Below are positions 8,485 to 28,016 of a DNA stretch of 34,876 nucleotides, one piece after another. The notes under the pieces are model-generated. The model saw only the letters and a list, made by a program, of their open reading frames with translations, had not been told where the DNA came from and ran no database searches. The position numbers and the translations under genes were made by a program. This DNA comes from Pseudomonadota bacterium (GTDB lineage Bacteria > Pseudomonadota > Alphaproteobacteria > Rhizobiales > Pleomorphomonadaceae): NCBI GenBank assembly GCA_018262575.1, contig JAGSYU010000020.1:1-34876 (forward strand), in the 5' to 3' direction. The first letter of the stretch is position 1. Each line of letters opens with the position of its first letter.

Positions 8485-8492
8485 AAACTTGT
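8485..8492. promoter_or_regulatory. AAACTTGT motif upstream of the FAH-family gene (candidate GntR half-site)
   Basis: AAACTTGT here is identical to the octamer at 9359-9366 and, inverted, at 9387-9394, both in front of the gntR gene. On the minus strand it overlaps a -35-like TTGACA (about 8494-8489). Shared placement in front of two genes suggests an operator for the neighbouring GntR protein; not proven. Confidence 0.35.
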
Positions 8493-8562
8493 CAACTCGT
8501 CTGGGAAGAGCCACGGAAACGGCCGCCCCGCCGCCAAAGCTTTTTCGTTCGAGCTCTCGCTA

Positions 8563-9300: not shown

Positions 9301-9348
9301 GGTCTCTGGCCTCGAAGGGTGGCAGCGGAAGGGCCAGAGGCAGCTAAT

Positions 9349-9394
9349 CTCAATTTGTAAACTTGTGCAAGCGGCGACGCCGGCCGACAAGTTT
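9349..9394. promoter_or_regulatory. Inverted repeat between kinase and gntR genes: candidate operator and/or terminator
   Basis: AAACTTGT (9359-9366) and ACAAGTTT (9387-9394) form a perfect 8-bp inverted repeat with a 20-bp GC-rich spacer; CTTGTGCAAG at 9362-9371 is itself a palindrome. The 16 bases from 9349, CTCAATTTGTAAACTT, match 14 of 16 with the complement of 28488-28503. On the minus strand the same repeat could fold as a weak terminator for the kinase operon. Confidence 0.4.
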
Positions 9395-10654: not shown

Positions 10655-10697
10655 GGCGAGCTCCTGCTCGGATCGGCCTAAGTTCAAGCGAGGACGC

Positions 10698-11944: not shown

Positions 11945-12951
11945 CTAGGCGGTCTCTTTTTCAATCTCGGCCAGGCGATGACAGGCGACCCGATGCCCCT
12001 TCCCATGATCTTCGAGCTCAGGGATAGACTGGGAGCAGATCTCCGCCGCGTAAACGCAACGCGGGTGGAACCGGCAGCCAGCAGGAGGATCGATGGCGTT
12101 CGACACGTCGCCCTGCAAGATGATGCGCTTGCGCGTCCGTTCCAGGTCCGGGTCGGCCTCGGGAACAGCCGATAGCAACGCCTTGGTGTAGGGATGCAGC
12201 GGCCGCCCGAACAACTCGTCCTTGGTGGCGATCTCCATGATCTTGCCGAGATACATCACGGCGACCCGGTCGGAGATATGCCGGACCACCGCCAGGTCGT
12301 GAGCGATGAACAGGTAAGTCAGATTGTACTTTTCCTGTATGTCCATCAGCAGGTTGATGATCTGTGCCTGGATCGACACGTCGAGCGCCGAGATCGGCTC
12401 ATCGCAGACGATGAATTCAGGATTGCTGGCCAGCGCCCTGGCGATGCAGATGCGCTGCCTCTGCCCACCCGAGAACTCGTGCGGATAGCGGTTGGCAACG
12501 TTGGGATTGAGCCCGACATCGCGGATGAGTTGCGCGACGCGCTGCTGGGTTTCCTTCTCCGGGCAGATCTTGTGCACGCGCATCGGTTCGGACAGCGCCT
12601 CGCCGATCGTCATGCGCGGATTGAGCGTCGAATAGGGATCCTGGAAGACGATCTGGACCCGCTTGCGCATGGCCCGAAGGTCCTTGGCGGGCAGCTTGGA
12701 CAGATCAACGCCATCGAACTTCACACTACCCGACGTCGCCTTGTGCAGCTGCAGCAGGGCGAAGCCAGTGGTCGACTTGCCGCACCCCGATTCGCCAACC
12801 AGGCCCAGCGTCTCGCCCTGGTAGATCTCGAAGCTGACGCCGTCGATGGCGTGGACCACCGCCGATTCCGTACCAAAGGCTCCGATCTTGATCGGAAAAT
12901 GCTTGACCAGATTCTCCACCACGACGAGTGGCTTCTGCTGTGCGTGCGTGT

Positions 12952-12955
<4 letters not shown>
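11945..12955 (-). CDS. ABC importer ATP-binding subunit, OppF/DppF type
   Basis: The 336-residue ATPase of a peptide/oligosaccharide-type importer acts on the inner face of the membrane with the OppD-type partner. Walker A GESGCGKST is at about 54-62, the signature 'FSGGQRQRICIAR' and Walker B 'FIVCDEPISALD' follow, and the C-terminal oligopeptide-transporter extension ends with the cysteine-containing 'GCRFHPRCVYA'. The ATG at 12955 overlaps the OppD-type stop by four bases (ATGA), showing coupled translation; an in-frame extension to 13099 only reads antisense of the partner's end. Last gene of the sigma-54-driven importer operon. Confidence 0.93.
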
Positions 12956-13953
<998 letters not shown>

Positions 13954-13985
13954 AGCGCCCTCCCTTTCTTCTTGTTGTTGCGGTC

Positions 13986-14939
13986 TCATTTCCACTGCCG
14001 CGGATTGAGGGCATCGTTCAGGCCGTCGCCGAGGAAGCTGAAGGCGATGGTGACGATGGCCAGCACTGCCGCCGGTGCGGCGAGGACGTGCGGGTACATC
14101 TGCCAGATACGCAGGCCGTCGCTGATCATGTTGCCCCAGCTCGGAATGGGCGGGCGCACACCGACACCGAGGAAGCTGAAGGAGGATTCAAGCACCATGG
14201 CCTCGCCCAGCGCGGCGCTGATGTAGACGATGATCGGGCCGATCGCGTTGGGGATGACGTAGCGGCGAACGATCCTGGACGTCGGCACGCCGAGCGCCTC
14301 GGCCGCCACCACATAGTTCTTGTTGCGGATCGACAGGATCTGGCCGCGGATGATGCGGGCCGCCTTGGGCCACTTGATCAGCGCCAGCGAGCCGAACACC
14401 AGCACGAAGTCGACCCAGATGGTGTTGCGATAGATCTGGTTACCGGTGGCCACGTATTGGGCGTCCATCCAGTTGACCAGCGGTGGCTTCAACGACACGT
14501 TGATCACGATGACCAGCAGCAGCGAGGGGATCGACATGGTGATGTCGATCAGCCAGACGATGAAGGCATCGATCTTGCCGCCGAAGTAGCCGCCGAGAGC
14601 GCCGAGAAAAATACCGATCACCAGGCTGAACGACACCGTCGAGAAGCCGACGATGACGGCGGTCCGCGAGCCGTAGATGACGCGGCTCATGATGTCGCGC
14701 CCGAGATCATCGGTGCCGAACCAGTGGAGCCACGACGGCGCCTGGTTGCGCGACATGAGATCCTGACTGAGGAAATCATATGGCGTGAGATACGGGCCAA
14801 ATATGGCGACGAAGAACAGGAAGACGACCAGCACCATGCCGACGATAGCCAGACGGTTGGCAACCAGGCGGATGAAGGCATCCTTGGCCAGGCTGAATTG
14901 CTTTTCTTCCTGCGGCAAAAGGAGGGCTTGGTCAGTCAT
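13986..14939 (-). CDS. ABC importer permease, DppC/OppC type
   Basis: The 317-residue inner-membrane protein begins with a cytoplasmic OppC_N segment and a first membrane span 'LAIVGMVLVVFLFFVAIFG', followed by the periplasmic 'FGTDDLGRDIMSRVIYGSR' typical of DppC proteins. Further spans follow, with the cytoplasmic EAA loop near 'VVAAEALGVPTSRIVRRYVIP'. It starts directly after the stop of the DppB-type gene. A roughly 30-residue insert around 'PPLVNWMDAQYVATGNQIYRN' lies in a periplasmic loop and is longer than in E. coli DppC, which may matter for docking to the binding protein. Confidence 0.93.
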   Translation of the reverse strand: MTDQALLLPQEEKQFSLAKDAFIRLVANRLAIVGMVLVVFLFFVAIFGPYLTPYDFLSQDLMSRNQAPSWLHWFGTDDLGRDIMSRVIYGSRTAVIVGFSTVSFSLVIGIFLGALGGYFGGKIDAFIVWLIDITMSIPSLLLVIVINVSLKPPLVNWMDAQYVATGNQIYRNTIWVDFVLVFGSLALIKWPKAARIIRGQILSIRNKNYVVAAEALGVPTSRIVRRYVIPNAIGPIIVYISAALGEAMVLESSFSFLGVGVRPPIPSWGNMISDGLRIWQMYPHVLAAPAAVLAIVTIAFSFLGDGLNDALNPRQWK

Positions 14940-15896
14940 TCATTCATCCTCCGTCTTTTTCGCGGCGGCGCGGGGGTCGAGCAGCGGGTAGGAGATGTCC
15001 ACGAGAAGGTTCGAAGCCATGACCACGATGGAAAAGATCAGCACGATGGCCATGATGACCGGATAGTCCGACGACTTGATCGCGGTTTCCGTCATCCGGC
15101 CGAGCCCCGGCAGGCCAAACACCTTCTCGATGAGGATCGAGTTGTTGAGCGTGGCGATCACCAGGAGGCCGATCTGGCTGACCACCGGGGTCAACACCGG
15201 CCGCATGATGTGGCGCATCACCACCTGGTAATTGGGAATGCCCTTGGCACGGGCGGTGCGCACGTAATCCTCGCTCAGCACTTCGAGCACACCGGCGCGT
15301 GCCTGGCGGATGATCAACGCCATGGGATTGAGACCGATCACCAGAAGCGGCACGATCACCTTGGTACTGAACAGACCGCCCCAGCCGTAGGGGACGTCGA
15401 AATCGAGGACCAGGACAAGGAAGACAGTGATCAGCGGACCGGCGACAAAGACCGGGATACCCCAGATGACCAGAGCAAAGCCGACGATGAGGTTGTCGAG
15501 CCACTTGTTCTGGTTGAGGGCGGCGATCACGCCGAGGAGGATGCCGACCACCGACACGAGGACGATCGCCGTGAGGCCGATCTTCAGCGTCACCGGCACC
15601 GCCGCGGAGATCATGGCGTTGACCGACCGGCCCGACACCAGCGAATTACCGAAATTTCCCTGGGCCACATTCAGGACATAGTCCCAGAACTGCAGCAGGA
15701 ACGGTCGGTTGAGACCAGCGGCCTCCCGGATGGCGTCAATGCGGGCCGGATCGTAGGCGACGTCGCCCGGCGCTTGCAGGAAGATCAGCTTGATGGGGTC
15801 GCCCGCACCGAAGAACACCAGTGCATAGACGAGCAGGAGAAGGATGAAGACAGATGGTATCCACCTGACAAGTCTATTGAGTATATAGCGCCCCAT
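14940..15896 (-). CDS. ABC importer permease, DppB/OppB type
   Basis: The 318-residue permease has the classic start 'MGRYILNRLVRWIPSVFILLL', the periplasmic proline/aspartate-rich loop with 'GDPIKLIFLQAPGD', and the cytoplasmic EAA loop 'EDYVRTARAKGIP'. The ATG at 15896 has GGGAGGTACTC before it; a longer frame to 15947 runs through the hairpin that separates it from the binding-protein gene and is not coding. It pairs with the adjacent DppC-type permease to form the channel. Confidence 0.93.
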   Translation of the reverse strand: MGRYILNRLVRWIPSVFILLLLVYALVFFGAGDPIKLIFLQAPGDVAYDPARIDAIREAAGLNRPFLLQFWDYVLNVAQGNFGNSLVSGRSVNAMISAAVPVTLKIGLTAIVLVSVVGILLGVIAALNQNKWLDNLIVGFALVIWGIPVFVAGPLITVFLVLVLDFDVPYGWGGLFSTKVIVPLLVIGLNPMALIIRQARAGVLEVLSEDYVRTARAKGIPNYQVVMRHIMRPVLTPVVSQIGLLVIATLNNSILIEKVFGLPGLGRMTETAIKSSDYPVIMAIVLIFSIVVMASNLLVDISYPLLDPRAAAKKTEDE

Positions 15897-15920
15897 GAGT
15901 ACCTCCCACGGATTCGGAGC

Positions 15921-15956
15921 AAAAAAGGGCGGGCAGTGAAACGCCACGGCCCGCCC
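15921..15956 (-). terminator. Intrinsic terminator/attenuator between binding-protein and permease genes
   Basis: On the minus strand an 8-bp GC stem (plus-strand arms GGGCGGGC 15927-15934 and GCCCGCCC 15949-15956, 14-nt loop) is followed by six T (A's at 15921-15926). It begins 13 bases after the binding-protein stop, inside the operon. It probably stops part of the transcripts, giving more binding protein than membrane subunits. Confidence 0.78.
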
Positions 15957-15968: not shown

Positions 15969-17582
15969 TTATGACGGGCGCTTTTCTTCGTCGATGGTCA
16001 CGTTCCAAGGCTCGATGACCTGCCAGTCATCGTTCTTGTCGAAGTTCTGGACCCAGGGCATCGCCCACTTCGACATCACGTCGTAGTAGTAGGGGATGTA
16101 CATCCAGTCTTCGCGGAAGAGCCGCTGCGCCTTCTGGGCGTTACCAATGCGGTCCGGATCCGCGACGCCCTTGACGGAAGCCTCGTCAAGAAGCTTGTCG
16201 ACCTCTGCATTCTTGTAGCCGCCCATCTTGTTGAGGGCGTTACCGGAACCCGAATGGATAGACCCCATCAGGTAGGAGACGGCATCCGGCACGCGTGTGC
16301 CAACGTCGTCGCGGAACACCTGGACGCTCTTCTGGTCCGGACCGGCATAGGTCTCGATGGCCGGCTTCATCTCGGTGCCCTGGATGCCGAGAACCTTCCG
16401 CCACTGCTCGGCGATATACTGGGCGGCAGCCTCGTGGGTCGGCGTCGAGATGCCGACGAACATGATCTTCGGCAGGCGATCGGAGCCCTTGTACTTGGAG
16501 GCGGCGAGCGCCGCCTTGGCCGCTTCCGGATCGTAAGCGAATTTCGGGAAGTCGGGATCGACGCCAGGCACCTTGTTGAGGATCTGGTCGGCGACCGTGA
16601 ACGGGCCATCGGGGAAGGCGGCGAGCGCCAGCTCCTGCGGATTGACCGACATGGTCAGGGCCTTGCGGACGTTGATATCGTCCATTGGCGGCTTGCTGGC
16701 GTCGAACCAGAACTGCTGGCCCTTGGCAAGCGCCGGGCCGCCGAGGAAGTCGGCGCCGAGGTCCTGGATAATGGTCGGCGTGATCAGCTCGGTGGCGGCA
16801 TCCATGTCGCCGCGCTGCAGCATCAGCGTAGCGGTGATCGGATCGGATACGGTGGTGAGGACGATCTTCTCGAGCTTGGGCTTCGGGCCAAAGAAATGCG
16901 GGTTCGGCACCAGGGTGACGATACCCTGGTCGAGGTCCATGCTCTCGGGCATGAACGGACCGGAGACGACGACGCCATTTTCCGGCCGCCACCAGTCAGC
17001 CTTCTGAGCGCCGCTTTCATCGACAGCCTGCGAGATCTTCACCGGCGGGATCAGGGCGGTGGCGATCTTCTGGTCAAAAATCGGATCGGGGCCTGCCAGC
17101 GTCACCGTGACGGTCTGGTCGTCATTGACGACAAGGCCCGTCATGTCCTTGGCCTTGCCGACGACCACATCGTTGAAGCCCTCGACATCGCCGAGGAACA
17201 GGTTGACGCGAGCATGCTTGGTGGCCGGACGGGCGCAGAGGTTCCAGGTACCGACGATGTCCTGAGCGGTGATCTTCGAGCCATCGGAGAAGACGGCCTT
17301 CGGATCGATGCTGAGCGTCCAGGTCTTGAAGCTCTCGTCAGGCTTGGCGCTCGACAGCACATAGGGCGTCAGCTTGCCATCTTTGTCGAAGTACATCGGC
17401 GCCGCCCACTGCAGCGACTGCCAACGCGCGACGTGGCCACCGCCCTGTAGGGGCGACCAGCTCTGCTCGAGAACGGGATGGGCGATATTCAGCACCTGAT
17501 CGGCCCAGGCAGGAAGGCCGGTGGTCGACAGTGCCGTCGCCGCAAGACCGATCATGAGGTATTTTCGGAAGCTCGTTTTCAT
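15969..17582 (-). CDS. ABC importer substrate-binding protein, family 5 (peptide/oligosaccharide type)
   Basis: The protein has 537 residues, periplasmic. A Sec signal peptide covers 1-27 (basic MKTSFRKY, hydrophobic core, cleavage after LPAWA). The mature part has SBP_bac_5 features: an early 'LTPYVLSSAKPDESFKTW', 'GSKITAQDIVGTWN' and a late 'GYKNAEVDKLLDEA'. Family 5 proteins bind peptides, but also nickel chelates, opines and oligosaccharides; the neighbours argue for a carbohydrate- or acid-bearing ligand. The ATG at 17582 has AGAGGAGACATCC before it. It is the first gene of the operon and lies directly downstream of a -24/-12 promoter, with the sigma-54 activator divergent to it. The ligand cannot be read from the sequence. 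Confidence 0.93.
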   Translation of the reverse strand: MKTSFRKYLMIGLAATALSTTGLPAWADQVLNIAHPVLEQSWSPLQGGGHVARWQSLQWAAPMYFDKDGKLTPYVLSSAKPDESFKTWTLSIDPKAVFSDGSKITAQDIVGTWNLCARPATKHARVNLFLGDVEGFNDVVVGKAKDMTGLVVNDDQTVTVTLAGPDPIFDQKIATALIPPVKISQAVDESGAQKADWWRPENGVVVSGPFMPESMDLDQGIVTLVPNPHFFGPKPKLEKIVLTTVSDPITATLMLQRGDMDAATELITPTIIQDLGADFLGGPALAKGQQFWFDASKPPMDDINVRKALTMSVNPQELALAAFPDGPFTVADQILNKVPGVDPDFPKFAYDPEAAKAALAASKYKGSDRLPKIMFVGISTPTHEAAAQYIAEQWRKVLGIQGTEMKPAIETYAGPDQKSVQVFRDDVGTRVPDAVSYLMGSIHSGSGNALNKMGGYKNAEVDKLLDEASVKGVADPDRIGNAQKAQRLFREDWMYIPYYYDVMSKWAMPWVQNFDKNDDWQVIEPWNVTIDEEKRPS

Positions 17583-17647: not shown

Positions 17648-17664
17648 GGCAAACGACGTGCCAA
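17648..17664 (-). promoter_or_regulatory. Sigma-54 (-24/-12) promoter of the ABC importer operon
   Basis: The minus strand reads TTGGCACGTCGTTTGCC: a perfect -24 box TTGGCACG, then a four-base spacer, then TTGC for -12, with the GG and GC exactly ten bases apart. It is about 65 bases before the binding-protein ATG, so transcription would start near 17638. A sigma-54 activator gene lies divergent and adjacent, which makes the call strong. Confidence 0.9.
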
Positions 17665-17822: not shown

Positions 17823-19712
17823 ATGGTCATCGCATTCATCGCACCGCATGAGCGCATCAGCATTGCCGCCAGGAGTATCGTCGCGGGGGCGGGTTATCCG
17901 GCGAAGGTCTATCTCGGCGACTTGCAGCAAGGCGTGAGAGCGGCACGGCAGGCGATGGCCGAGGGAGCCAAGATCTTCATCAGCCGCGGTGGCACAGCAC
18001 GCCTCATCCGCCAGGAACTCGGCGTGGAGGTCATCGAGGTCGAGGCCTCCGTGCAGCGCACCCTGGCCTATGTCTACAAGGAAACCTCGGAGACGACGAA
18101 GATTGCCGTCGCCGGCTTCGAGCCGCTGATCAACCTCGTGGCACCGGTCTGCGACGTGCTTGGTCGAACCTATCGGTCCTTTGAGCTGAAAGAGAAATCG
18201 TCGTTCCAGGCGCAGATGGATCGGATCGGCAAGTGGGGACCGGACGTCGTCATCGGCGACGCCATCGCCTACCACTGGGCACAAGCAAGGGGCCTCGACG
18301 CCTATCTGATCGAATCCAGCCTGGAGACCCTGCTTGCCGCCTTTGAGCGCGCCATGCTGGTCTACAACAACCTCTGCCGCTACATCCTCGCCGAAGAAAA
18401 GCTTGCCACCGTCCTCAACTGTTCGCGGGAGGGTGCCATCCTGATCAACCGGGAAGGCATTATCGAGGAGATCAATCGGCAGGGCTGCGACATCCTGTCC
18501 CAGTCGCGCGAGGAGCTGATCGGTGCCCTGCTGTCGGACTATTTCGACAGCTCCGAACTCAGCCGGGCCTTCCGCAAGAATCTGACCGCCCGCAACATGC
18601 TCGTCAACTATCGCGACGAGAAACTGGCGCTCGATCACATCACGGTCGCGTCCGACAGCCAGACCGGCGGCTCGTCGGTCATCCTGTTCCAGCCCGTCCA
18701 GAAGATCCAGGACACCGGCAACGTCATCCGCAGAAAGCTCGCTGATAGCGGCTTTTACGCCAAGTACACCTTTGACGACATCTTCTTTGCCAGCGAGAAG
18801 ATGCGTCAGCTGGTGGCGGTGGCCAAGCAGTACAGCCAGTCCGACAGCAACATCATGATCGTCGGTGAAACGGGCACGGGCAAGGAGCTGTTTGCGCAGT
18901 CCATCCATAACGCCGGTCCTCTCGCCAAAGGCCCTTTCGTGGCGGTGAACTGCGCCGCGCTGCCAGGTGAGCTGCTGGAGAGCGAGCTGTTCGGCTATGC
19001 GCCGGGCGCCTTCACCGGCGCCTCCCGCTCGGGCAAGATCGGTCTGTTCGAGCTCGCTCATGAAGGAACGCTATTCCTCGACGAGCTGACGGAGATGGAT
19101 TTTTTCCTGCAGTCCAAGCTGCTCAGAGCGCTGCAGACACAGGAAATCATGCGCGTCGGCGGCAACAAGATCATCCCGATCAAGGCTCGCATCATCGCCA
19201 CGACCAACAGGAAGCCGCTTGAGGAGATCCAGCATGGCCGCCTGCGCGCCGACCTTTTCTACCGCCTCAACACGCTGGACCTGAAAATCCCACCGCTCAG
19301 GGAGCGGGAGAACGATCCGGCACAGCTGTTTGCGCTGTTCCTCGCCAAGAAATGCCAGCGGCGCGGCATCCCCGTGCCGACGGTCCCCGAAAAGATTCTG
19401 GCGCTGCTGCGCCACTATTCCTGGCCGGGCAATGTCAGAGAGCTCGAAAATCTCGCCGAGAAATACACGACGCTGCACACGCTCTCCCCGTTCGACATGC
19501 CGCTGATGACCGAACTCTCCGACATCGGCATGGCAGACGCGGACGACGAGGACGATGGCGACGCGACGCTTGACGACTTCATCGCCGCCAAGGTCGGCAG
19601 GGTGTTTCGGGCCGAGAACGGCAATGTTACGCGGACCGCACAACGGCTCGGCATCGATCGCAACACCGTCAAGCGCTGGCTGGAGAAAACGCCGGATAAG
19701 ATCTCCGTCTAA
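17823..19712 (+). CDS. Sigma-54-dependent activator with PrpR N-terminal sensor domain, PAS, AAA+ and Fis-type HTH
   Basis: The protein has 629 residues. A PrpR_N-like sensor (about 1-175; 'KIFISRGGTARLIRQ' and 'VVIGDAIAYHWAQARG' are typical) is followed by a PAS segment (about 192-295). The AAA+ domain has Walker A GETGTGKE at 348-355, the sigma-54 contact loop GAFTGA at 395-400, Walker B LFLDE at 417-421, and 'RLRADLFYRL' with the arginine finger. A C-terminal Fis-type helix-turn-helix contains 'NVTRTAQRLGIDRNTVKRWL'. The ATG at 17823 has GGGAGGAAATC before it; an in-frame extension to 17709 is not supported. Divergent from the importer operon with a -24/-12 promoter, it is very likely its activator. 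PrpR_N domains bind small acids such as 2-methylcitrate; this ligand is unknown. Confidence 0.92.
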   Translation: MVIAFIAPHERISIAARSIVAGAGYPAKVYLGDLQQGVRAARQAMAEGAKIFISRGGTARLIRQELGVEVIEVEASVQRTLAYVYKETSETTKIAVAGFEPLINLVAPVCDVLGRTYRSFELKEKSSFQAQMDRIGKWGPDVVIGDAIAYHWAQARGLDAYLIESSLETLLAAFERAMLVYNNLCRYILAEEKLATVLNCSREGAILINREGIIEEINRQGCDILSQSREELIGALLSDYFDSSELSRAFRKNLTARNMLVNYRDEKLALDHITVASDSQTGGSSVILFQPVQKIQDTGNVIRRKLADSGFYAKYTFDDIFFASEKMRQLVAVAKQYSQSDSNIMIVGETGTGKELFAQSIHNAGPLAKGPFVAVNCAALPGELLESELFGYAPGAFTGASRSGKIGLFELAHEGTLFLDELTEMDFFLQSKLLRALQTQEIMRVGGNKIIPIKARIIATTNRKPLEEIQHGRLRADLFYRLNTLDLKIPPLRERENDPAQLFALFLAKKCQRRGIPVPTVPEKILALLRHYSWPGNVRELENLAEKYTTLHTLSPFDMPLMTELSDIGMADADDEDDGDATLDDFIAAKVGRVFRAENGNVTRTAQRLGIDRNTVKRWLEKTPDKISV

Positions 19713-19720
19713 CGGATATC

Positions 19721-19744
19721 GGCCCGGATTGCCTCATCCGGGCC
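19721..19744. terminator. Hairpin between convergent activator and larB genes
   Basis: GGCCCGGAT (19721-19729) and ATCCGGGCC (19736-19744) form a perfect 9-bp stem with a six-base loop. One arm overlaps the larB stop codon. No T-run is present on either strand, so it is a candidate bidirectional terminator. Confidence 0.5.
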
Positions 19745-20393
19745 GGACATGCTCCAGTCGCAGAATACGCAGCGCCAGACAGGCCGCCCCGAAGCCGTTG
19801 TCGATATTGACGGTGGCAAGGCCAGGCGCACACGACGCCAGCGCCGACGAAAGGGCGGCGCGCCCGCCCGCGGCAACGCCATAGCCGATGGAGGTCGGCA
19901 CCGCGATCACCGGAGCATCGACGAGGCCGGCAAGCACCGAGAAGAGCGCTCCTTCCATGCCGGCCACCGCAACGACCACCGCATGACGGCGGATCGCCTC
20001 GATCTCCGACATCAGCCGCCACAGGCCGGCAACGCCAACATCGCGGACGAGGTACGCGCCTTCGCCATGAAAGGCGAGTGTGCGCTCGGCTTCTCTGGCC
20101 ACCGGCAGATCGGAGGTACCGGCCGCAACGATACACACCCGGGCCGGCGCCACGGCCACCGGCGACCCGAGCACGGCGGTGTGCGACAGGGGATCGTGAT
20201 CGAGCTGCGCCACGATGTCGGCTGGCAGCGCATCGACAGTCTCGGTGGTGAGCCGGGTGAGCAAGAGACGCCGCCCCTCAGCCGATCGCAGGATGGCGGC
20301 GAGCTGAGCCGGGCTCTTGCCGGCGCAATACACCGCTTCCGCCGTCCCGGTCCGTCGCTCGCGATCCCAGTCGATCCGGAAGTCATCGCTCAT
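19734..20393 (-). CDS. larB: LarB: nickel-pincer cofactor synthesis, NaAD carboxylase/hydrolase
   Basis: The protein has 219 residues. LarB carboxylates the pyridinium ring of nicotinate adenine dinucleotide and releases AMP, the first step towards the nickel-pincer nucleotide used by LarA. The C-terminal part is PurE/AIRC-like: 'VCIVAAGTSDLPVAREA', 'VVVAVAGMEGALFSVLAGLVD', 'PTSIGYG' and the diagnostic 'VNIDNGFGAA'. The N-terminal 'ETVDALPADI' region is also typical. The ATG overlaps the larE stop by four bases (ATGA), so translation is coupled. It is the last gene of the operon. Confidence 0.93.
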   Translation of the reverse strand: MSDDFRIDWDRERRTGTAEAVYCAGKSPAQLAAILRSAEGRRLLLTRLTTETVDALPADIVAQLDHDPLSHTAVLGSPVAVAPARVCIVAAGTSDLPVAREAERTLAFHGEGAYLVRDVGVAGLWRLMSEIEAIRRHAVVVAVAGMEGALFSVLAGLVDAPVIAVPTSIGYGVAAGGRAALSSALASCAPGLATVNIDNGFGAACLALRILRLEHVRPG

Positions 20394-21203
20394 CCCAGCG
20401 ACCTTTCGCCGACGAGATCAGCGGTGGGATGCAAGAAAGCCGAGCCGCGGCGGTAGCGGCGAAGTCCGGCGAAAGAGCGCCCGCCCTCGCGGCAAAGGCG
20501 CGCCGCCAGCGACACGATGCCGTCATCCTCGCCAGCGGTGGGCAACGGGTCGGCTTCGACCACGACACCTGTGGCGGTGACGCGGCAGCGCAAGTGCGTC
20601 GCTCGCGGCAGCAGCGGCGCCAGCGCCGCCTCCACCCGCTCGACGAAGGCAAGCGTCGTGGCATCGACGACAAGGCCGGTCTCGATGCGGCTGGCAAGGC
20701 AGGGCTGCGCCGGCAGCGCCGCCAGGTCGTCGAGCCCGAGGGCCGCCGCCAGTGCGTAGACGTCGCGCTTGGCCAGCCCCGCTTCCACGAAGGGATGGAT
20801 CACCCGATGATCCTCGGCTGCCCTTAGGCCCGGACGATAGTCGCCGAGATCGTCGAGGTTGGTGCCGGAGGCGGTCGGAAAATCGGCGACCGCCCGAATG
20901 CGATCATAGAGCCGGCTCTTGCAGAAGAAGCAGCGATCGACCGGGTTCGCACGATAGGTCGGGTCGTCAAGCTCGCCGGCATCGACCACCCGGAGCTGCC
21001 AGCCGAAGCGCTGCGCGTGGATACGGACGCGTTCCGTTGCACTGGCCGGCACAGCCGGCGAGGCGGCATGGAAGGCTACCAGCCGCGTGCGCGTATGGCC
21101 GTGGACGACGTGCGCCAGCACCATGCTGTCGACGCCGCCGCTGACGGCGACGGCGAGTTCGTCAAAGCGCTCAATCACCCTGATGAGGCGAAGGGGAACC
21201 GGT

Positions 21204-21214
<11 letters not shown>
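20390..21214 (-). CDS. larE: LarE: ATP-dependent sulfur transferase for the nickel-pincer cofactor
   Basis: The protein has 274 residues. A PP-loop ATP pyrophosphatase core is seen with SGGVDS at 25-30, then 'NPVDRCFFCKSRLY' and 'LPAQPCLASRIETG'. LarE adenylates the two carboxylates of the LarB product and turns them into thiocarboxylates. Three cysteines are placed as in cluster-bearing LarE: Cys95 and Cys98 (CFFC) and Cys172 (PCLASR). Enzymes with only the last cysteine give up their own sulfur, whereas the three-cysteine type holds a [4Fe-4S] cluster that carries an extra sulfide, so this one is expected to be catalytic. The start overlaps the end of larC by 11 bases and is preceded by ACGGAGACC. 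Confidence 0.92.
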
Positions 21215-22526
<1,312 letters not shown>

Positions 22527-22537
22527 GTCGGCGATCC

Positions 22538-23854
22538 TCAGTGCGGCCACGCATCGAGAAGCCGGCCATTGCCATCGAAGGCCATGGCATGTGGCTCGCC
22601 GATGATGTCGATGCCCGGCCTCGACGCGAGCTCGGGCAGCAGCGCCTCCGAAGCATAAAGATACTCAAGATGCAGGGTGTTCGGTATCCGCATCATGGTG
22701 ATGGCGTCCGGCCGGTGCGATTCGCAGGTCTTCACGGCCGCCTGGATGGCGGTCTTGTCGTCCGGCATGGCCATCGGCAGCGAGGCGGCAATCAGCACGC
22801 CTGAAGTCAGCGAGTTGGTATAGACCGACTCCCGATCGAAGCGGTTGAACAGGCGCTCTGTGATGACGTCGGCGCGGGCGACGCCGTTGGCGTTGCCGGC
22901 GCTCTTGTCGGTGACATCCAGGACAACGATGCGCGACACCGACGGACCGCCGCTGATCGCCCGGGTCGACGGCCGGCCGTTGATGTTGGGGTCCATGCCG
23001 CTGCCGGAAAACTCCTTGCCGACATAATCGACGATCAGCACGTCGAGCGGGCCCGAGGCCAGCGGTTGGTCGAGCGGACCGAGCGGCAACCGCGGCATGT
23101 TGGCCATGGCGACGGCGAGATGCTCCCGCTCGCGCTCGACCATCCCTTCGGTCGGCAGCACCACGACTTGCGACAGGCGGTCGTAGGCATTCTCGATGGT
23201 GGCGATGCCGAACAGCACCCGGCAGGTGGCAAGTTTCACCCGCGCCATCTCGACGATGAAGCGGCCGACGTAGTCGAACCCCCAGGCGTGGCAGTTGTCG
23301 GCACCCGACTGCTTGCCGAGCCCGATCGACAGCATCTTGACGAGGCCGCTCTCATTGGGGGCGCGAAAGGCGCTGTGCGGCTTGATGCGGTTGAACAGCA
23401 CGATGCCGTCGGCCTCATAGGCCAGCCTGTCGATGCGCACCGACATGCCGTTGTCGAGCCGACCGACCTCGACGGTTTCCATGCTGGAACGGATCGGGCA
23501 GCCGGCGCTTGCCTCCGTCACGCCGAGATGTGCCAGCACCTTGGTCTGCCCCTCGGCGGTGGCGCCGCCGTGGCTGCCCATCGCCGGCACGATGAACGGC
23601 ACGGCGCCGCGTGCCTTCAGTTCGGCGACGACCGCCCGAACCAGTTCGGGCAGCGCGGCCAATCCGCGGCTGCCGACGGTCAGCGCCACCGACATGCCCG
23701 GCCGGATGGTCTCCGTAACGCAGGCGGCACCGGCCATGGCGTCGTGGACAGCCCTGTCCGGCGATGGCGCGTCGATTGCGGCAAAGCTCTGACGCACCAG
23801 CGCCATCTTCGGGATGGCGATGTTCTCGACCAGCCTGACGTAGCTTGGCTTCAT
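22538..23854 (-). CDS. larA: LarA-family nickel-pincer racemase/epimerase of a 2-hydroxyacid
   Basis: The protein has 438 residues. Residues matching the LarA catalytic set are all present: Arg63 (VGSRG), His95 (MGSHGG), His160 (RIKPHSAF), the cofactor-tethering Lys173 in SGLVKMLSIGLG, and His189 (NCHAWG). The C-terminal domain has 'GKEFSGSGMDPNINGR'. LarA inverts the C2 hydroxyl of 2-hydroxyacids by hydride transfer to the nickel-pincer nucleotide. The superfamily includes lactate and malate racemases and sugar-acid 2-epimerases. Here it is cotranscribed with a sugar-acid-type pathway rather than with lactate genes, so lactate is not the likely substrate. ATG at 23854 with CGGAGGAC upstream. 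I keep the symbol for the family, not for lactate specificity. Confidence 0.9.
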   Translation of the reverse strand: MKPSYVRLVENIAIPKMALVRQSFAAIDAPSPDRAVHDAMAGAACVTETIRPGMSVALTVGSRGLAALPELVRAVVAELKARGAVPFIVPAMGSHGGATAEGQTKVLAHLGVTEASAGCPIRSSMETVEVGRLDNGMSVRIDRLAYEADGIVLFNRIKPHSAFRAPNESGLVKMLSIGLGKQSGADNCHAWGFDYVGRFIVEMARVKLATCRVLFGIATIENAYDRLSQVVVLPTEGMVEREREHLAVAMANMPRLPLGPLDQPLASGPLDVLIVDYVGKEFSGSGMDPNINGRPSTRAISGGPSVSRIVVLDVTDKSAGNANGVARADVITERLFNRFDRESVYTNSLTSGVLIAASLPMAMPDDKTAIQAAVKTCESHRPDAITMMRIPNTLHLEYLYASEALLPELASRPGIDIIGEPHAMAFDGNGRLLDAWPH

Positions 23855-23897
23855 GCTTGTCCTCCGCAGTCTGGATCGTCCGGCCGCGCCTGACCTG

Positions 23898-24866
23898 TCA
23901 GGTCGGGTGAACGAGGAACCGAGCGTCGATCTTGCGCCCTTCAAGAAGCGCCACAAGGTTGCGGCAGGTCATCATCGAGAGCTCGCGCCTTGCCTCCTCC
24001 GTGACGCCACCGACGTGTGGGCTGACGATCACGTTGGGAAAGCTCCAGAGCGGATTGGCGGTGGCCGGCGGCTCGGGCGCAAAAACGTCGAGGCCGGCGG
24101 CAGCGATGCCGCCGCTCCGGAGCGCCTCAACCAGCGCCGGCTCATCCACCACCTCACCGCGGGCGGTGTTGATCAGAACGGCGTCCCGTTTCATCAACGA
24201 AAGAGTGCGGGCGCCGATCATGCCGCGCGTCTCATCGGTGAGCGGGCAATGCAGGCTGACCACGTCGGACCGGGAAAGCAGCGTGTCGAGGTCTATCACC
24301 CGTTCGGCATGCGAACCGAAAGCCGCGTCGGCAACATAGGGATCGTAGGCGATGGTCTTCATGCCGAACGGGACGACCAGCCGGGCGACGATGCTGCCGA
24401 TGGCGCCTATGCCGATGATGCCCAGGGTGCGGCCGCGCAGTTCATGGCCGCGATAGGCCTTCTTTTCCCAGCCGCCGCCGCGCACGAAGGCGTCCTGGGT
24501 TCTAAGATCCTTGGCCAGTGCCAGCATCAGCGTCAGCGCGTGCTCGGCCACCGAATGCGCGTTGGCACCAACGGCGGCCAGCACGGGGATGCCAAGCGCC
24601 GCAGCAGCGGCAACGTCAATGTCGTTGGTGCCGGCGCCGTGCTTGGCGATCACCTTCAGCTTGGGCGATGCCATCATGACTTCGGCGTCAACGCGCTCGA
24701 TCAGCCGCACCACCAGCGCATCGGGCTGGATCTCGGCAAGAAGGGGGAGGAGTTCCGCCTTGCCAGGATAGGGACCGGTCGACAACGAAACGATGCCGGC
24801 GGTGCGGAGAATATCCTCGCCTTCGGGCGCGACCGGCCCGCCGAGACTGAGGACGGTGAAAGACAT
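23898..24866 (-). CDS. D-isomer-specific 2-hydroxyacid dehydrogenase (SerA-like, NAD-dependent)
   Basis: The 322-residue single-subunit form lacks an ACT domain. The Rossmann motif GIGAIG is at 152-157. The catalytic trio is Arg236 (NTARGEVVD), Glu265 (DVFAPEP) and His284 (SPHVGG). It oxidises a D-2-hydroxyacid to the 2-keto acid or the reverse, in the cytoplasm. Beside LarA, which would convert an L- to a D-hydroxyacid, it is the natural next step, and the keto acid could then go to the DapA-like enzyme. The ATG at 24866 has GGAG nine bases upstream; a TTG at 24884 is less likely. The substrate could be a sugar acid, since many members act on phosphoglycerate, glycerate or hydroxyisocaproate. 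Confidence 0.9.
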   Translation of the reverse strand: MSFTVLSLGGPVAPEGEDILRTAGIVSLSTGPYPGKAELLPLLAEIQPDALVVRLIERVDAEVMMASPKLKVIAKHGAGTNDIDVAAAAALGIPVLAAVGANAHSVAEHALTLMLALAKDLRTQDAFVRGGGWEKKAYRGHELRGRTLGIIGIGAIGSIVARLVVPFGMKTIAYDPYVADAAFGSHAERVIDLDTLLSRSDVVSLHCPLTDETRGMIGARTLSLMKRDAVLINTARGEVVDEPALVEALRSGGIAAAGLDVFAPEPPATANPLWSFPNVIVSPHVGGVTEEARRELSMMTCRNLVALLEGRKIDARFLVHPT

Positions 24867-24886
24867 GGGCTCAACTCCGGACAACG

Positions 24887-24908
24887 CCCGGCGGACAAGC
24901 CCGCCGGG
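24887..24908. other. Intra-operon hairpin
   Basis: CCCGGCGG (24887-24894) and CCGCCGGG (24901-24908) pair with a six-base loop between the DapA-like stop and the dehydrogenase start. There is no T-run, so it is more likely a processing or stability element than a terminator. Confidence 0.4.
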
Positions 24909-24921
24909 GTGAAGATCGGCC

Positions 24922-25812
24922 TCAGGCTATGGCTTCGGCAAAGGTCTTGGAGACCAGCGCCACCTTGTCGTTGACCTCATCGGTGACGATCGCCGGACCG
25001 CGGCTTTTGCCAACATCGGGCATGGCGAGATAGAGGGCGCGCTTGACCATGGTGGGTGGGAAGCCATGGGCGTAGAGCGCCTTGCGCAATTCGCCGTAAT
25101 GGGCCTGCGCGGCGTCCGCACCAGCGGTGTCACCGGCAGTGTGGGCGGTCCAGATGGCGTTGAGCGTCAGCGGGGCGATGTTGCCGAGGCCGGAGATACA
25201 GCCGGCGGCGCCATTCCTGAGACCATGCAGGATGAGGTGGTCCGGCCCGACCAGCACGTCGAAGTCGTCCCGACCCTTGGCGACGGCGAGGAAGCCATCG
25301 AGGCTCTCGTCGGAGCCGGCACTATCCTTGATACCGACGATGTTGGGGTGGCTGGCGAGCCTTGCGGCGGTCTCCGGCTCGATCTTGTTTCCGGTACGGG
25401 CCGGGATGTTATAGAGATAGACGGGCACCGAAAGCGCGTCAGCGACGCGGGTATAGTGCGTGACGAGTTCATCCTGCGAGCAGGCGATAAACGACGGCGC
25501 CACCACCGAAACGGCCGCGACACCAAGCTTTTCCACCGCCTTGCCGAGGACGATGGTCTGATGCGTCGAGATCTCGCCGACGTGGGCGAGCACTGGCACG
25601 CGCCCGGCGGCCGCCTCGACCGATGTTCTCGCCACCAGCACCTTCTCTTCGAAGGACAGCGTGTAGAACTCGCCGTTGGTGCCGGCGCAGAAGACGCCGT
25701 TGCCCGCCGCTGCCTGGCGCTTGACCTGACGGGTGAGCGCGGCGACGTTAACCTCTTCCTTGGCGTCGAACGGGGTGACGATGGCGACGAAGGGGCCTTT
25801 GGTAGTGCTCAT
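24922..25812 (-). CDS. DapA/NanA-family Schiff-base lyase or aldolase
   Basis: The protein has 296 residues, a (beta/alpha)8 barrel of the class I pyruvate-lyase type. Seen: GTNGEF at 44-49 (keto-acid carboxylate loop; DapA has GTTGE), Tyr134 in YNIPARTG, and the Schiff-base Lys162 in GIKDSAG. Family members include dihydrodipicolinate synthase, N-acetylneuraminate lyase and 2-keto-3-deoxy sugar-acid aldolases and dehydratases. Position in a catabolic operon next to a hydroxyacid dehydrogenase argues for cleavage or dehydration of a 2-keto sugar acid, not lysine synthesis. The ATG at 25812 is chosen over a GTG at 25824 because it has GTGGAAAG before it. The ligand-defining residues cannot be decided by eye. 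Confidence 0.88.
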   Translation of the reverse strand: MSTTKGPFVAIVTPFDAKEEVNVAALTRQVKRQAAAGNGVFCAGTNGEFYTLSFEEKVLVARTSVEAAAGRVPVLAHVGEISTHQTIVLGKAVEKLGVAAVSVVAPSFIACSQDELVTHYTRVADALSVPVYLYNIPARTGNKIEPETAARLASHPNIVGIKDSAGSDESLDGFLAVAKGRDDFDVLVGPDHLILHGLRNGAAGCISGLGNIAPLTLNAIWTAHTAGDTAGADAAQAHYGELRKALYAHGFPPTMVKRALYLAMPDVGKSRGPAIVTDEVNDKVALVSKTFAEAIA

Positions 25813-25842
25813 GAGGCTTTCCACTTCCGTTGGGAGATCGCG

Positions 25843-26973
25843 TCAGAAGGCGGCGCGGTAGATCGAGAGAATATCCGTCTCAGTGAGGTCGCGCGGATTG
25901 TTGTCGAGGAGACGGCGGATGGCGTGCGCCTCGCCGGCCATGGCCGGCAGATCGGCGGCCGGCACACCGAAGGCCGACATCCGCATCTCGCAGCCGAGTC
26001 TTAGGCACCAGTCATGGGCGGCGGCGAATACCGTCTCCGGCTCGGCGGAGACAGGCAGTCCCAGCGCCTCGAGGACCGCCGCCGTCCGCTCCGGCACCGC
26101 CGGCGCATTGAAGGCCAGCACATGCGGGAAGATCAGCGCGTTGGCAGCGCCGTGCGCCACGTGGTAGCGAGCGCCCAGCGGATAGGATACGGCGTGACCA
26201 CCGGCCGTGTTGACCGGTCCGAGGCAGTAACCGCCATAGAGCGAGGCAAGTGCCATACCGGCGCGCGCTTCCGGATCGTGGCCGTCGTTGGCAGCCCTGG
26301 CCAGCCAGTGGCCGACCAGTCGGATGCCCTCGAGGGCATAGATGTCGACGACCGGATGGGCTTTCCGATTGGTGAAGGCCTCGACGCAGTGAGCAAGCGC
26401 GTCGACGCCCGTCGCCACGGTGATTGCCCGGGGCATGCCGAGCGCCAGGTCGGGGTCGACGACGGCGAGATCGGCCAGCATGTGGCGGCTCTGCACCGCG
26501 CTCTTGGCCGCCGCCGCCACGTCGGTGACCAGCGCCCGCGTGCCGACCTCGCTGCCGGTGCCGGCGGTCGTCGGCACCTGGACGAGCGGCAGCACCTTGC
26601 CGGCGACCTTTTCAGGACCCACCACTTCGGAAAAGCTCTGTCCGCTGCGGACGAGGACGGCGACCAGCTTGGCAAGGTCCATGGCGCTGCCGCCACCAAA
26701 CCCCACAACGGCGTCGACACCGGCCGTCTCGGCCGCGACGACGACACGGGCGAGGTCATCGGTAGTCGGTTCGCCAGCGAGTTCACCCCAGACGACCGGT
26801 TCGCCCGGCAGGTCCAGGCAGGCGACACGGGCAGCGTTGAAGGTGTCCGTGACGACCATCGGCCGGCGGCTGCCTTGCCGGGCGAGCCAGCGGCCGGCCT
26901 CGCCGGCCGTGCCGCGGCCGAAAGCCAGACGGCAAGGCTGTACGAGGTCGATGGGAGTTCCAAGAGGCGTCAT
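25843..26973 (-). CDS. Iron-containing (group III) alcohol dehydrogenase
   Basis: The protein has 376 residues. NAD-binding GGGSAMD is at about 93-99; the metal ligands are Asp191 and His195 (GVDALAH), His260 (GGHAVSYPLG) and His274 (HGAANAL). These enzymes interconvert aldehydes or keto acids and alcohols with NAD(P)H. In this operon it may reduce an aldehyde released by the aldolase, or oxidise a hydroxyl of the substrate. The group also includes lactaldehyde and maleylacetate reductases, so the substrate is open. The ATG at 26973 overlaps the PdxA-like stop by four bases. Confidence 0.9.
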   Translation of the reverse strand: MTPLGTPIDLVQPCRLAFGRGTAGEAGRWLARQGSRRPMVVTDTFNAARVACLDLPGEPVVWGELAGEPTTDDLARVVVAAETAGVDAVVGFGGGSAMDLAKLVAVLVRSGQSFSEVVGPEKVAGKVLPLVQVPTTAGTGSEVGTRALVTDVAAAAKSAVQSRHMLADLAVVDPDLALGMPRAITVATGVDALAHCVEAFTNRKAHPVVDIYALEGIRLVGHWLARAANDGHDPEARAGMALASLYGGYCLGPVNTAGGHAVSYPLGARYHVAHGAANALIFPHVLAFNAPAVPERTAAVLEALGLPVSAEPETVFAAAHDWCLRLGCEMRMSAFGVPAADLPAMAGEAHAIRRLLDNNPRDLTETDILSIYRAAF

Positions 26974-28016
26974 GACTTGGCAGCTCCCTGCAACCCGGCG
27001 ATGCGCGTTGCCGCCAGCCGGACGGCGTAGTCGACCGCCTCAAGCAGGCTCAGCTCGTTGGCGATCCCCTTGCCGGCGATGTCGAAGGCGGTCCCGTGAT
27101 CGACCGAGGTACGGACGATCGGCAGACCGAGCGTGATATTGACGCCGGACAGCGAGTTCCAGGTGCCGGTCTTCGGATCGACGTTGAAGCCAAGCAGCTT
27201 GACGGGGATATGGCCCTGGTCGTGGTACATGGCGACCACCGCATCATACTGGCCGGCGTGCAGCTTGACGAATACCGTGTCGCCCGGCACAGGACCGACG
27301 ACGTCGAGCCCCTCGGCAACGCACTGCGCAATCACCGGCTCGCTGACCTCGATGTCCTGCCGACCGAACAGGCCACCCTCGCCGGCATGCGGATTGAGGG
27401 CGGCGACGGCGATGCGGCGGCGCGGCAAGCCGAGCCCCTCGAGCGTTTCGGCCGTCAGGTCGATGACGTAGCGCAACCGTTCCGGCGTCAGCTTCTTCGG
27501 CACATCCTCAAGGGCAATGTGCGTGGTGACGTGGCTCACCCGCATGTTGCCATGAGCGAGCATCATCACCGAGCCCTTTGCCCCCGTGAGATGGGCGAGG
27601 AGATCGGTATGACCGGCAAAATGGAAGCCAGCCTTGTTCAGCGCCTCCTTGTTGAGAGGCGCGGTGACGATGCCGTGGATGCGGCCCGCCTGGGCAAGCC
27701 GGACGGCTTGTTCCACCGCATGATAGGCAAAACGACCACCGTCGGTCGACAGCACGCCGGGCAGAATGGGCGCGCCCTCTGGGCAGGCCTGCAGCGCGGC
27801 AAGCCCCGGCCATTCGCCCGTCGCTTCCACCGCCGGAATATCCAGCTCGGGTGCAAAGGCGCGGCAGGCTCGGTTGAGCGCATCGTTCGAGCCGATGACC
27901 AGCAGGCGCAGCTCATCCGCGTCGAGGCGCGGCTTCAGCACCTTGCAGGCCTTGGCGATGATCTCGGGGCCGACGCCGGCCGGGTCGCCCATGGTGATTG
28001 CCAGATGTGGGATCAA
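26970..28016 (-). CDS. PdxA2-like 4-phospho-threonate/erythronate dehydrogenase (PdxA family)
   Basis: The protein has 348 residues. Family signatures are 'ITMGDPAGVGPEI' at the N-terminus, metal-binding histidines in 'FAGHTDLLA', 'NPHAGEGGLFG' and 'YHDQGHIPVK', and 'VDHGTAFDIAGKG' near the end. PdxA itself serves pyridoxal phosphate synthesis, but PdxA2 paralogues oxidise 4-phospho-D-threonate or -erythronate, giving dihydroxyacetone phosphate and CO2, together with a DUF1537 kinase. Such a kinase is at 9398-10654, which supports the catabolic reading. The start is an unusual TTG at 28016, set by GAGAGGAA seven bases before it; the nearby ATG is out of frame. First gene of the eight-gene lar operon. 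Confidence 0.86.
   Translation of the reverse strand: MIPHLAITMGDPAGVGPEIIAKACKVLKPRLDADELRLLVIGSNDALNRACRAFAPELDIPAVEATGEWPGLAALQACPEGAPILPGVLSTDGGRFAYHAVEQAVRLAQAGRIHGIVTAPLNKEALNKAGFHFAGHTDLLAHLTGAKGSVMMLAHGNMRVSHVTTHIALEDVPKKLTPERLRYVIDLTAETLEGLGLPRRRIAVAALNPHAGEGGLFGRQDIEVSEPVIAQCVAEGLDVVGPVPGDTVFVKLHAGQYDAVVAMYHDQGHIPVKLLGFNVDPKTGTWNSLSGVNITLGLPIVRTSVDHGTAFDIAGKGIANELSLLEAVDYAVRLAATRIAGLQGAAKS

What the first reader, a model, noticed from the sequence alone, without database searches (positions are those of the whole stretch)
19734..28016. Nickel-pincer (Lar) racemase operon fused to a sugar-acid-like catabolic pathway
LarA with its full cofactor pathway (LarB, LarC, LarE) sits in one overlapping operon with a D-2-hydroxyacid dehydrogenase, a DapA-like lyase, an iron alcohol dehydrogenase and a PdxA2-like dehydrogenase. 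The LarA catalytic residues (Arg63, His95, His160, Lys173, His189) are intact. Known LarA-family activities include lactate and malate racemization and sugar-acid 2-epimerization. A plausible order is epimerization at C2, oxidation to a 2-keto acid, then aldol cleavage or dehydration. I know of no described pathway with this gene set, so it may be a new route for an unusual hydroxyacid.
Basis: partly seen in the sequence, partly recalled or inferred. Interest (0 to 1): 0.8.

Follow-up and report, generated by a model that had tools for sequence, protein, structure and literature searches.

The report
Nickel-cofactor sugar-acid epimerase catabolic cluster
A Pleomorphomonas-type bacterium carries a conserved gene cluster in which an uncharacterised relative of the nickel enzyme lactate racemase sits with genes that break down small sugar acids, so it probably flips one carbon of a four-carbon sugar acid to make it usable as food.

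Summary
The gene set is real. LarA matches NCBIfam group 22 of the nickel-pincer enzymes (489 bits, cut-off 400), which has no assigned function. Its fold is LarA-like, and Arg63, His95, His160, Lys173 and His189 are invariant in all 60 aligned group-22 sequences. The cluster is larger than reported, about 20 kb (7621-28016): it also holds a DUF1537 acid-sugar kinase, an ABC transporter behind a conserved sigma-54-type promoter sequence, a PrpR-type activator, a GntR regulator and an FAH protein. Of the 15 closest LarA loci 12 carry PdxA and a DUF1537 kinase; of 65 more distant loci two do. Some other group-22 genes sit with aldonate, aldarate or glucuronate genes, but 39 of 65 show no such neighbour. 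Best reading: C2-epimerase of a four-carbon sugar acid, most likely D-erythronate to D-threonate, feeding kinase and PdxA2 to dihydroxyacetone phosphate. The DapA-like, D-2-hydroxyacid and iron alcohol dehydrogenases remain unexplained. No activity was measured. Against: outside Pleomorphomonas the kinases are at most 30% identical to the window's, and LarA's Asp72 and Gln295/Lys298 are not recognisable in group 22.

The parts
26970..28016 (-). PdxA2-type dehydrogenase; best solved matches 2hi1 (4-hydroxythreonine-4-phosphate dehydrogenase 2) and 6e85 (D-threonate 4-phosphate dehydrogenase)
   Evidence: a second PdxA lies on another contig of the genome
25843..26973 (-). iron-containing alcohol dehydrogenase, perhaps an aldehyde reductase; best solved matches NAD(P)-dependent methanol dehydrogenases
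24922..25824 (-). DapA-like class I aldolase/dehydratase; below the dapA cut-off (196.8 vs 206.15 bits)
23898..24884 (-). D-2-hydroxyacid dehydrogenase of the phosphoglycerate dehydrogenase/glyoxylate reductase type
22538..23854 (-). LarA homolog, nickel-pincer isomerase group 22, 438 aa from the ATG (the ORF extends to a TTG at 23956)
21204..22550 (-). LarC, one frame with both LarC1 and LarC2 parts and a His-rich insert
20390..21214 (-). LarE, SGGVDS and CXXC-C motifs
19734..20393 (-). LarB
17823..19712 (+). PrpR_N / sigma-54 activator (longest frame starts 17709; the ATG at 17823 follows a ribosome-binding-site-like GGAGGA)
17648..17664 (-). sigma-54-type promoter sequence TTGGCAC-N5-TTGC before the transporter operon
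   Evidence: same place in the two other Pleomorphomonas genomes with the cluster
15969..17582 (-). SBP_bac_5 solute-binding protein
11945..15947 (-). four ABC transporter genes: two permeases (14940-15947, 13986-14939) and two ATPases (12952-13995, 11945-13099)
10698..11771 (-). BNR_2 (sialidase-like propeller) protein, role unknown
9398..10687 (-). DUF1537 acid-sugar kinase, the only match to Pfam PF17042 in the genome (86% complete); best NCBIfam model D-threonate kinase but below its cut-off (226.7 vs 450)
8563..9390 (-). GntR/FCD regulator, 52-58% identical to a GntR in eight of the 15 close loci (L006-L011, L014, L018)
7621..8514 (-). FAH-fold hydratase/hydrolase

Best explanation
The cluster is a probably inducible catabolic island for a four-carbon sugar acid. 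LarBCE make the nickel-pincer cofactor and LarA of group 22 uses it to invert C2 of the acid by proton-coupled hydride transfer between two histidines (His95, His160). The most likely reaction is D-erythronate to D-threonate. The DUF1537 kinase then makes D-threonate 4-phosphate and PdxA2 oxidises and decarboxylates it to dihydroxyacetone phosphate and CO2. Shown: gene content, conserved catalytic residues, fold match of the model, conserved neighbourhoods, a conserved sigma-54-type promoter sequence. Inferred: substrate, direction, reaction and regulation. The dehydrogenase, DapA-like enzyme and alcohol dehydrogenase may form a side branch for a 2-keto acid; their substrate is not known.
For: LarA group 22: 489 bits; His/Arg/Lys set in 60 of 60; hhalign to 14 canonical LarAs, probability 95, aligns it with the L. 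plantarum set; model pLDDT 92.7, and all 18 PDB matches at E<=0.001 are LarA-family. PdxA and a DUF1537 kinase in 12 of 15 close loci and 2 of 65 distant ones (the kinases of L004 and L005 lie beyond their stored flanks). Closest named functions are D-threonate kinase and D-threonate 4-phosphate dehydrogenase. Those two activities convert D-threonate to DHAP and, with a permease, gave growth of E. coli on it (passages of PMC10079672). LarA-type enzymes epimerise 4-deoxy-threonate/erythronate (PMC11770544). Sister and some distant group-22 genes sit with sugar-acid enzymes.
Against: No activity measured. Outside Pleomorphomonas the window's kinase matches those of the close loci at 26-30% only (six loci) or not at E<=1e-8 (L008, L009, L017, L018), although PdxA2 is 78-81% identical in six of them; it also misses the D-threonate kinase cut-off. 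In the window kinase and PdxA2 are 16 kb apart, in two operons. LarA's Asp72 and Gln295/Lys298 are not recognisable in group 22. HADH, DapA-like and FeADH are conserved but not needed by this route. L012 and L016, inside the clade, lack PdxA and kinase by LarA. 39 of 65 distant loci match none of seven sugar-acid-type queries, and 0 of 10 loci of a second sample had PdxA or kinase.
Confidence: 0.42

Rival explanations
1. One reading: LarA epimerises a longer sugar acid or other hydroxyacid, the D-2-hydroxyacid dehydrogenase oxidises it to a 2-keto acid, the DapA-like enzyme cleaves or dehydrates it, and the alcohol dehydrogenase reduces the aldehyde; kinase and PdxA2 only clean up a four-carbon fragment.
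For: HADH in 13 (one of them, in L016, a 39% match some 8 kb away), DapA-like in 12 and FeADH in 9 of 15 close loci; three of the six loci without FeADH have a 3-hydroxyisobutyrate-dehydrogenase-type reductase. In Clostridia, group-22 LarA sits with a DapA-like gene and a reductase of which the one scanned passes the tartronate-semialdehyde-reductase cut-off.
Against: Kinase and PdxA are as well conserved as these genes (12 of 15) and occur without them in L027 and L072. The two sugar-acid dehydratase queries (GDAH, IlvD) match 0 of 15 close loci. DapA-like genes of the three Halomonas-type clusters are only 36-38% identical to the window's.
Confidence: 0.25
2. LarA acts on a five- or six-carbon aldonate or on an aldarate, as its relatives may do, and the kinase/PdxA2 pair serves a separate four-carbon acid that happens to be co-regulated.
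For: Sister LarAs on Sulfitobacter and Pseudosulfitobacter plasmids (63.9 and 62.5% identical) lie by an altronate/galactarate-dehydratase-like gene and an annotated L-arabinonate dehydratase; a Paenibacillus LarA lies between glucuronate isomerase and an SDR. The Paenibacillus order resembles the D-mannonate to D-gluconate logic described for T. maritima GntE2 (passages of PMC7583248).
Against: Those dehydratase queries match none of the 15 close loci nor the window, and 13 of the 15 rows of the window's clade have PdxA plus kinase.
Confidence: 0.2
3. Group 22 lacks the carboxylate-binding Gln295/Lys298 and the Asp72 of other LarAs, so it does another hydride-mediated isomerisation, not a C2 inversion of a 2-hydroxyacid.
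For: hhalign stops at residue 277 of 438; invariant Lys280, Ser283, Gly284, Gly286 and Asp288 lie where the canonical motif would be expected. Desguin et al. raise this idea for groups that miss residues (passages).
Against: Both catalytic histidines and the three cofactor ligands are invariant; the model aligns with LarA structures over 372-468 alignment columns, though at rmsd 7-10.
Confidence: 0.08

Closest known systems
Lactate racemase LarA of L. plantarum and its LarBCE cofactor pathway (PDB 5huq, 6c1w)
   Same: Fold; Arg75, His108, His174, Lys184 and His200 equivalents; LarB, LarC and LarE in the same row
   Different: 13-15% identity to these two entries by Foldseek; lactate racemase model not matched; Asp72, Gln295 and Lys298 not recognisable; sugar-acid neighbours
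D-gluconate 2-epimerase GntE2 of Thermotoga maritima
   Same: Nickel-pincer C2 inversion of an aldonate, first guessed from gene context; small residues after the second histidine
   Different: GntE2 has measured activity; the T. maritima control genome matches Lar_N but not the group-22 model
D-threonate pathway: DUF1537 kinase and PdxA2 to dihydroxyacetone phosphate
   Same: Both enzyme families present, nearest named relatives are those of D-threonate
   Different: A nickel epimerase is not part of the known pathway as seen; the window's kinase and PdxA2 miss the narrow D-threonate models (226.7 vs 450 and 289.4 vs 583 bits)
D-erythronate/L-threonate pathway by LtnD/DenD, OtnI, OtnK, OtnC
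   Same: Overlapping substrates and the same end product (passages)
   Different: Uses a dehydrogenase, an isomerase, a kinase and an aldolase-type decarboxylase; here one NPN enzyme would replace the first steps

Membership tests
LarA superfamily (nickel-pincer 2-hydroxyacid racemases/epimerases) | LarA fold | tested here: met
   All 18 PDB matches at E<=0.001 are LarA-family structures, TM 0.41-0.56
LarA superfamily (nickel-pincer 2-hydroxyacid racemases/epimerases) | Cofactor ligands Arg75, Lys184, His200 | tested here: met
   R63, K173, H189 invariant in 60 of 60, aligned by hhalign, H189 by equal spacing
LarA superfamily (nickel-pincer 2-hydroxyacid racemases/epimerases) | Catalytic His108 and His174 | tested here: met
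   H95 and H160 invariant in 60 of 60
LarA superfamily (nickel-pincer 2-hydroxyacid racemases/epimerases) | Asp72 and Gln295/Lys298 | tested here: inconclusive
   Asp72 aligns with a gap; the alignment ends before 295-298; Lys280 is invariant instead
LarA superfamily (nickel-pincer 2-hydroxyacid racemases/epimerases) | Binds NPN and inverts C2 | not testable with these tools
   Needs purified holo-enzyme
Lactate racemase (NF033504) | Match to the curated lactate racemase model | tested here: not met
   No match at E<=0.001; the canonical sequence L094 scores 677.7 bits against a cut-off of 460
Group 22 NPN isomerase (NF052515) | Score over cut-off 400 | tested here: met
   489.2 bits
D-threonate catabolism (DUF1537 kinase plus PdxA2) | Kinase over the D-threonate kinase cut-off | tested here: not met
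   226.7 bits, cut-off 450; still its best NCBIfam model
D-threonate catabolism (DUF1537 kinase plus PdxA2) | PdxA2 over the D-threonate-4-P dehydrogenase cut-off | tested here: not met
   289.4 bits, cut-off 583; nearest solved chains are of PdxA2 type
D-threonate catabolism (DUF1537 kinase plus PdxA2) | Kinase and PdxA2 encoded together | tested here: inconclusive
   Adjacent in sister clusters such as L007, L013, L014; in the window in one conserved island but 16 kb apart; the genome's other PdxA is on another contig
D-threonate catabolism (DUF1537 kinase plus PdxA2) | Activity on D-threonate | not testable with these tools
   Needs assay

The most novel reading that the evidence does not exclude
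Group 22 is a family of nickel-pincer sugar-acid C2-epimerases whose members are tuned to different chain lengths, and this clade opens a nickel-dependent entry of D-erythronate into glycolysis by way of D-threonate, which would be the first nickel-pincer enzyme for tetronates known to me and a new four-carbon acid pathway.
Probability: 0.35. Interest if true: 0.72.

Novelty: new variant of a known kind. Interest (0 to 1): 0.6.

Why it matters
Many groups of the LarA superfamily have no known reaction. Here a group without an assigned function gets a narrow, testable prediction: four-carbon sugar acids for this clade and perhaps longer sugar acids for some relatives. If true it adds a nickel-dependent step to sugar-acid catabolism in proteobacteria and a route for D-erythronate that needs no redox steps before the kinase.

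Tried and rejected
Lactate racemase: rejected by the family models. A LarA of the one-histidine type (PMC12611868, outline and sections 5, 9, 10): rejected, both histidines are invariant. phmmer of LarA against solved sequences found nothing at E<=1, and a profile search gave one weak Mar2 hit (E 0.12) among six chance hits; profile-profile and fold comparison were needed. The enolase-type gene (4037-5140) was considered as a sugar-acid dehydratase but scores over cut-off as MenC and was left out. L012 and L016 were checked for a distant kinase: both genomes have DUF1537 genes; the best one of each is read in one long frame with a 3-hydroxyisobutyrate-dehydrogenase-type part, not a PdxA pair. 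The larger regions fetched around them were not analysed. A second sample (8 of 289 and 3 of 398 genomes with a match, the window's own counted in both; 9 other genomes, 10 loci, LarA 36-51% identical) had PdxA or kinase in 0 of 10, so the link is to the clade, not to group 22 as a whole; three of the 10 stretches are short (4.8-10.5 kb). The group table compares only the two labelled groups, leaves 45 rows out and counts L027 and L072 as labelled, so its 'one change' is not used. A cleavage of 2-oxotetronate to hydroxypyruvate and formaldehyde was considered as chemistry only, with no test. Active-site motifs of DapA, HADH, PdxA and FeADH were compared with recalled motifs only and are not counted as evidence. 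The stereochemistry of the tetronates is recalled. On re-checking, the odds that LarA is a sugar-acid C2-epimerase at all were lowered from 0.8 to 0.75, because 39 of 65 distant loci show no sugar-acid-type neighbour.
Full report
OBSERVATION. Junctions are -4, +18, +37, +43, -13, -11 and -4 bp; none of the 9 terminator-like patterns found in 17500-28300 lies in a gap. The model that fits is NCBIfam NF052515, nickel pincer isomerase group 22 (489.2 bits, cut-off 400); the lactate racemase model does not match at E<=0.001.

IT IS A LARA. Sequence searches against solved structures hardly see the family. A profile of 60 group-22 proteins against 14 canonical LarAs aligns at probability 95 over 255 columns. 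One of the 14, L094, aligns without gaps to the lactate racemase chain 6c1w with an offset of 3, which fixes the numbering: R63=R75, H95=H108, H160=H174, K173=K184, and H189=H200 by equal spacing of 16 residues. All five are invariant in 60 of 60. The AlphaFold model (pLDDT 92.7) matches 18 PDB chains at E<=0.001, all of the LarA family, at 13-16% identity and rmsd 7-10. Asp72 aligns with a gap and Gln295/Lys298 lie outside the aligned part; Lys280, Ser283, Gly284, Gly286 and Asp288 are invariant. The residue after the second histidine, known to touch the substrate side chain (passages), is Ser in 13 of 13 aligned members of the window's clade with PdxA and kinase and Asn in 8 of 8 members whose loci have a tartronate-semialdehyde-reductase-type and a DapA-like gene; over all 60 it is Thr 30, Ser 15, Asn 13, Val 2.

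THE CLUSTER IS LARGER. Downstream lie a PrpR_N/sigma-54 activator on the plus strand, then a minus-strand row of solute-binding protein, two permeases, two ATPases, a BNR_2 protein, a DUF1537 kinase, a GntR regulator and an FAH protein. A sigma-54-type site, TTGGCACGTCGTTTGC, lies upstream of the solute-binding protein. The loose pattern scan over the window is at chance level (13 matches, 14.6 expected; two with one mismatch, the other inside the alcohol dehydrogenase gene), but a strict pattern found this site alone in the window, one site in the same place in each of the two other Pleomorphomonas genomes, and none in the ten other close loci scanned. The whole row is syntenic in those two genomes. 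Of 13 other same-genus genomes searched, two have the LarA gene, so the island is accessory. The kinase is the only match to Pfam PF17042 in the genome, which is 86% complete; a second PdxA lies elsewhere.

NEIGHBOURHOODS. One scan of GTDB contigs returned 80 loci. In the 15 closest (LarA at least 74% identical, L004-L018), PdxA is present in 12, HADH 13, DapA-like 12, FeADH 9, TctC 13, TctA 11, LarC, LarE and LarB 10 each; a DUF1537 kinase is in 10 of the stored loci and also in the genomes of L004 and L005 beyond the stored flank. The three without PdxA are L011, a 5.4-kb contig, and L012 and L016. In the 65 other loci PdxA and kinase occur together in two, L027 (Acidaminobacter) and L072 (Dehalococcoidales). 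In the tree the window lies in a 15-row clade (98/98) of which 13 rows have PdxA and kinase; L027 and L072 lie far away, though L072 has a long branch and weak placement. This suggests, but does not prove, that the link arose more than once. The sister rows are Sulfitobacter-type plasmid genes beside an altronate/galactarate-dehydratase-like gene, an annotated L-arabinonate dehydratase and a DapA-family gene. Seven of nine distant loci with a tartronate-semialdehyde-reductase-type gene and a DapA-like gene also hold a galactarate/altronate-dehydratase-type gene; the one such Clostridia reductase scanned passes its cut-off (418.5 vs 397). A galactarate/altronate- or IlvD-type dehydratase is in 18 of 65 distant loci; 39 of 65 match none of seven sugar-acid-type queries, many of them planctomycete loci. 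A Paenibacillus plasmid has glucuronate isomerase, LarA, SDR, LarE, LarB, LarC in a row. Of five haloarchaeal plasmid regions three have an FAH gene, two a DUF4147 gene and two LUD genes near LarA; a Rubrobacter plasmid has a mandelate-racemase-type gene next to it. None of the nine plasmid regions opened lists PdxA or a DUF1537 kinase, in an annotation that is incomplete. A second, evenly drawn sample gave 10 loci in 9 further genomes, LarA 36-51% identical, none with PdxA or kinase; two of the 10 show sugar-acid dehydratase genes.

MECHANISM. The kinase's best NCBIfam model is D-threonate kinase (226.7 bits, cut-off 450), and PdxA's best solved relatives are of PdxA2 type, one of them named D-threonate 4-phosphate dehydrogenase; both miss the narrow curated cut-offs. 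[quoted passage not shown] coli on it (passages of PMC10079672); that PdxA2 serves organic-acid catabolism is stated in PMC9997740 (passages), and that DUF1537 kinases serve four-carbon acid sugars in PMC7954711 (passages). The original 2016 paper is not held. D-erythronate is the C2 epimer of D-threonate (recalled). LarA-type enzymes epimerise the 4-deoxy analogues weakly (PMC11770544). The simplest chain is therefore D-erythronate, LarA, D-threonate, kinase, PdxA2, DHAP. It leaves HADH, the DapA-like enzyme and FeADH without a role. They may serve another stereoisomer: in evolved E. coli strains SerA, a phosphoglycerate dehydrogenase like this HADH's family, is reported to oxidise erythronate to 3,4-dihydroxy-2-oxobutyrate (PMC7954711, passages). 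This branch is speculation.

WHAT SPEAKS AGAINST. Outside Pleomorphomonas the window's kinase matches those of six close loci at 26-30% and four not at E<=1e-8, although PdxA2, FeADH, DapA and HADH are 65-81% identical in six of these ten loci; so the kinase was replaced or differs in function. In L006 PdxA, FeADH, DapA and HADH are 41, 54, 51 and 38% identical, and in the three Halomonas-type loci PdxA, DapA and HADH are 45, 36-38 and 43%. In the window kinase and PdxA2 are 16 kb apart. The transporter is of SBP_bac_5 ABC type in Pleomorphomonas and Tct type in most other close loci.

LITERATURE. Group 22 (taken as the group number of the 2020 survey, from the NCBIfam name) is not among the 13 homologs tested there (Table 1 passage). 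The nine homologs of the 2024 study are assigned there to lactate, hydrophobic-acid, malate, gluconate and hydroxyglutarate groups (parts 1-3 of 6). Group-by-group supplements could not be opened, so a context note on group 22 may exist there. A search for papers with at least two of LarA, lactate racemase, nickel-pincer, DUF1537, PdxA2, threonate kinase gave 54, of which 40 were listed; none of the 40 held a term of both kinds. Only openly licensed papers are held.

VERDICT. A real, conserved cluster around an uncharacterised nickel-pincer enzyme; sugar-acid C2-epimerase is likely (about 0.75), the tetronate assignment is the best single guess (0.42).

Noticed in passing
window 3300-5140 (-): A MenC/N-succinylamino-acid-racemase-type enolase gene (over the menC cut-off) next to a GNAT acetyltransferase, perhaps an amino-acid racemisation pair unrelated to this cluster.
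   Followed up: partly
window 29774-32174 (+): YjjI-type glycyl radical enzyme with an overlapping radical SAM gene, followed by an AMP-binding enzyme and a creatininase-family gene.
   Followed up: no
window 322-3179 (-): Mannose-1-phosphate guanylyltransferase/isomerase-type and phosphomannomutase-type genes.
   Followed up: no
window 10698-11771 (-): Sialidase-like BNR_2 protein kept in three Pleomorphomonas clusters; only weak matches to solved sialidases.
   Followed up: partly
L133, L134: DUF1537 kinase in one long frame (736-747 aa) with a 3-hydroxyisobutyrate-dehydrogenase-type part, in the genomes of L012 and L016, the two clade members without PdxA by LarA.
   Followed up: partly
L049, L050, L116, L122: Some genomes carry several group-22-type LarA genes: two on one contig in L049 and in L050; L116 and L122 are further genes in the genomes of L020 and L038 and pass the group-22 cut-off.
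   Followed up: no
L126-L128, L131, L132: Haloarchaeal group-22-type LarAs, some annotated as DUF362 proteins, lie near FAH, DUF4147 or LUD genes.
   Followed up: partly
control genome Haloferax volcanii: It matches all three family searches: group-22 LarA, DUF1537 and PdxA. Whether the genes are neighbours was not seen.
   Followed up: no
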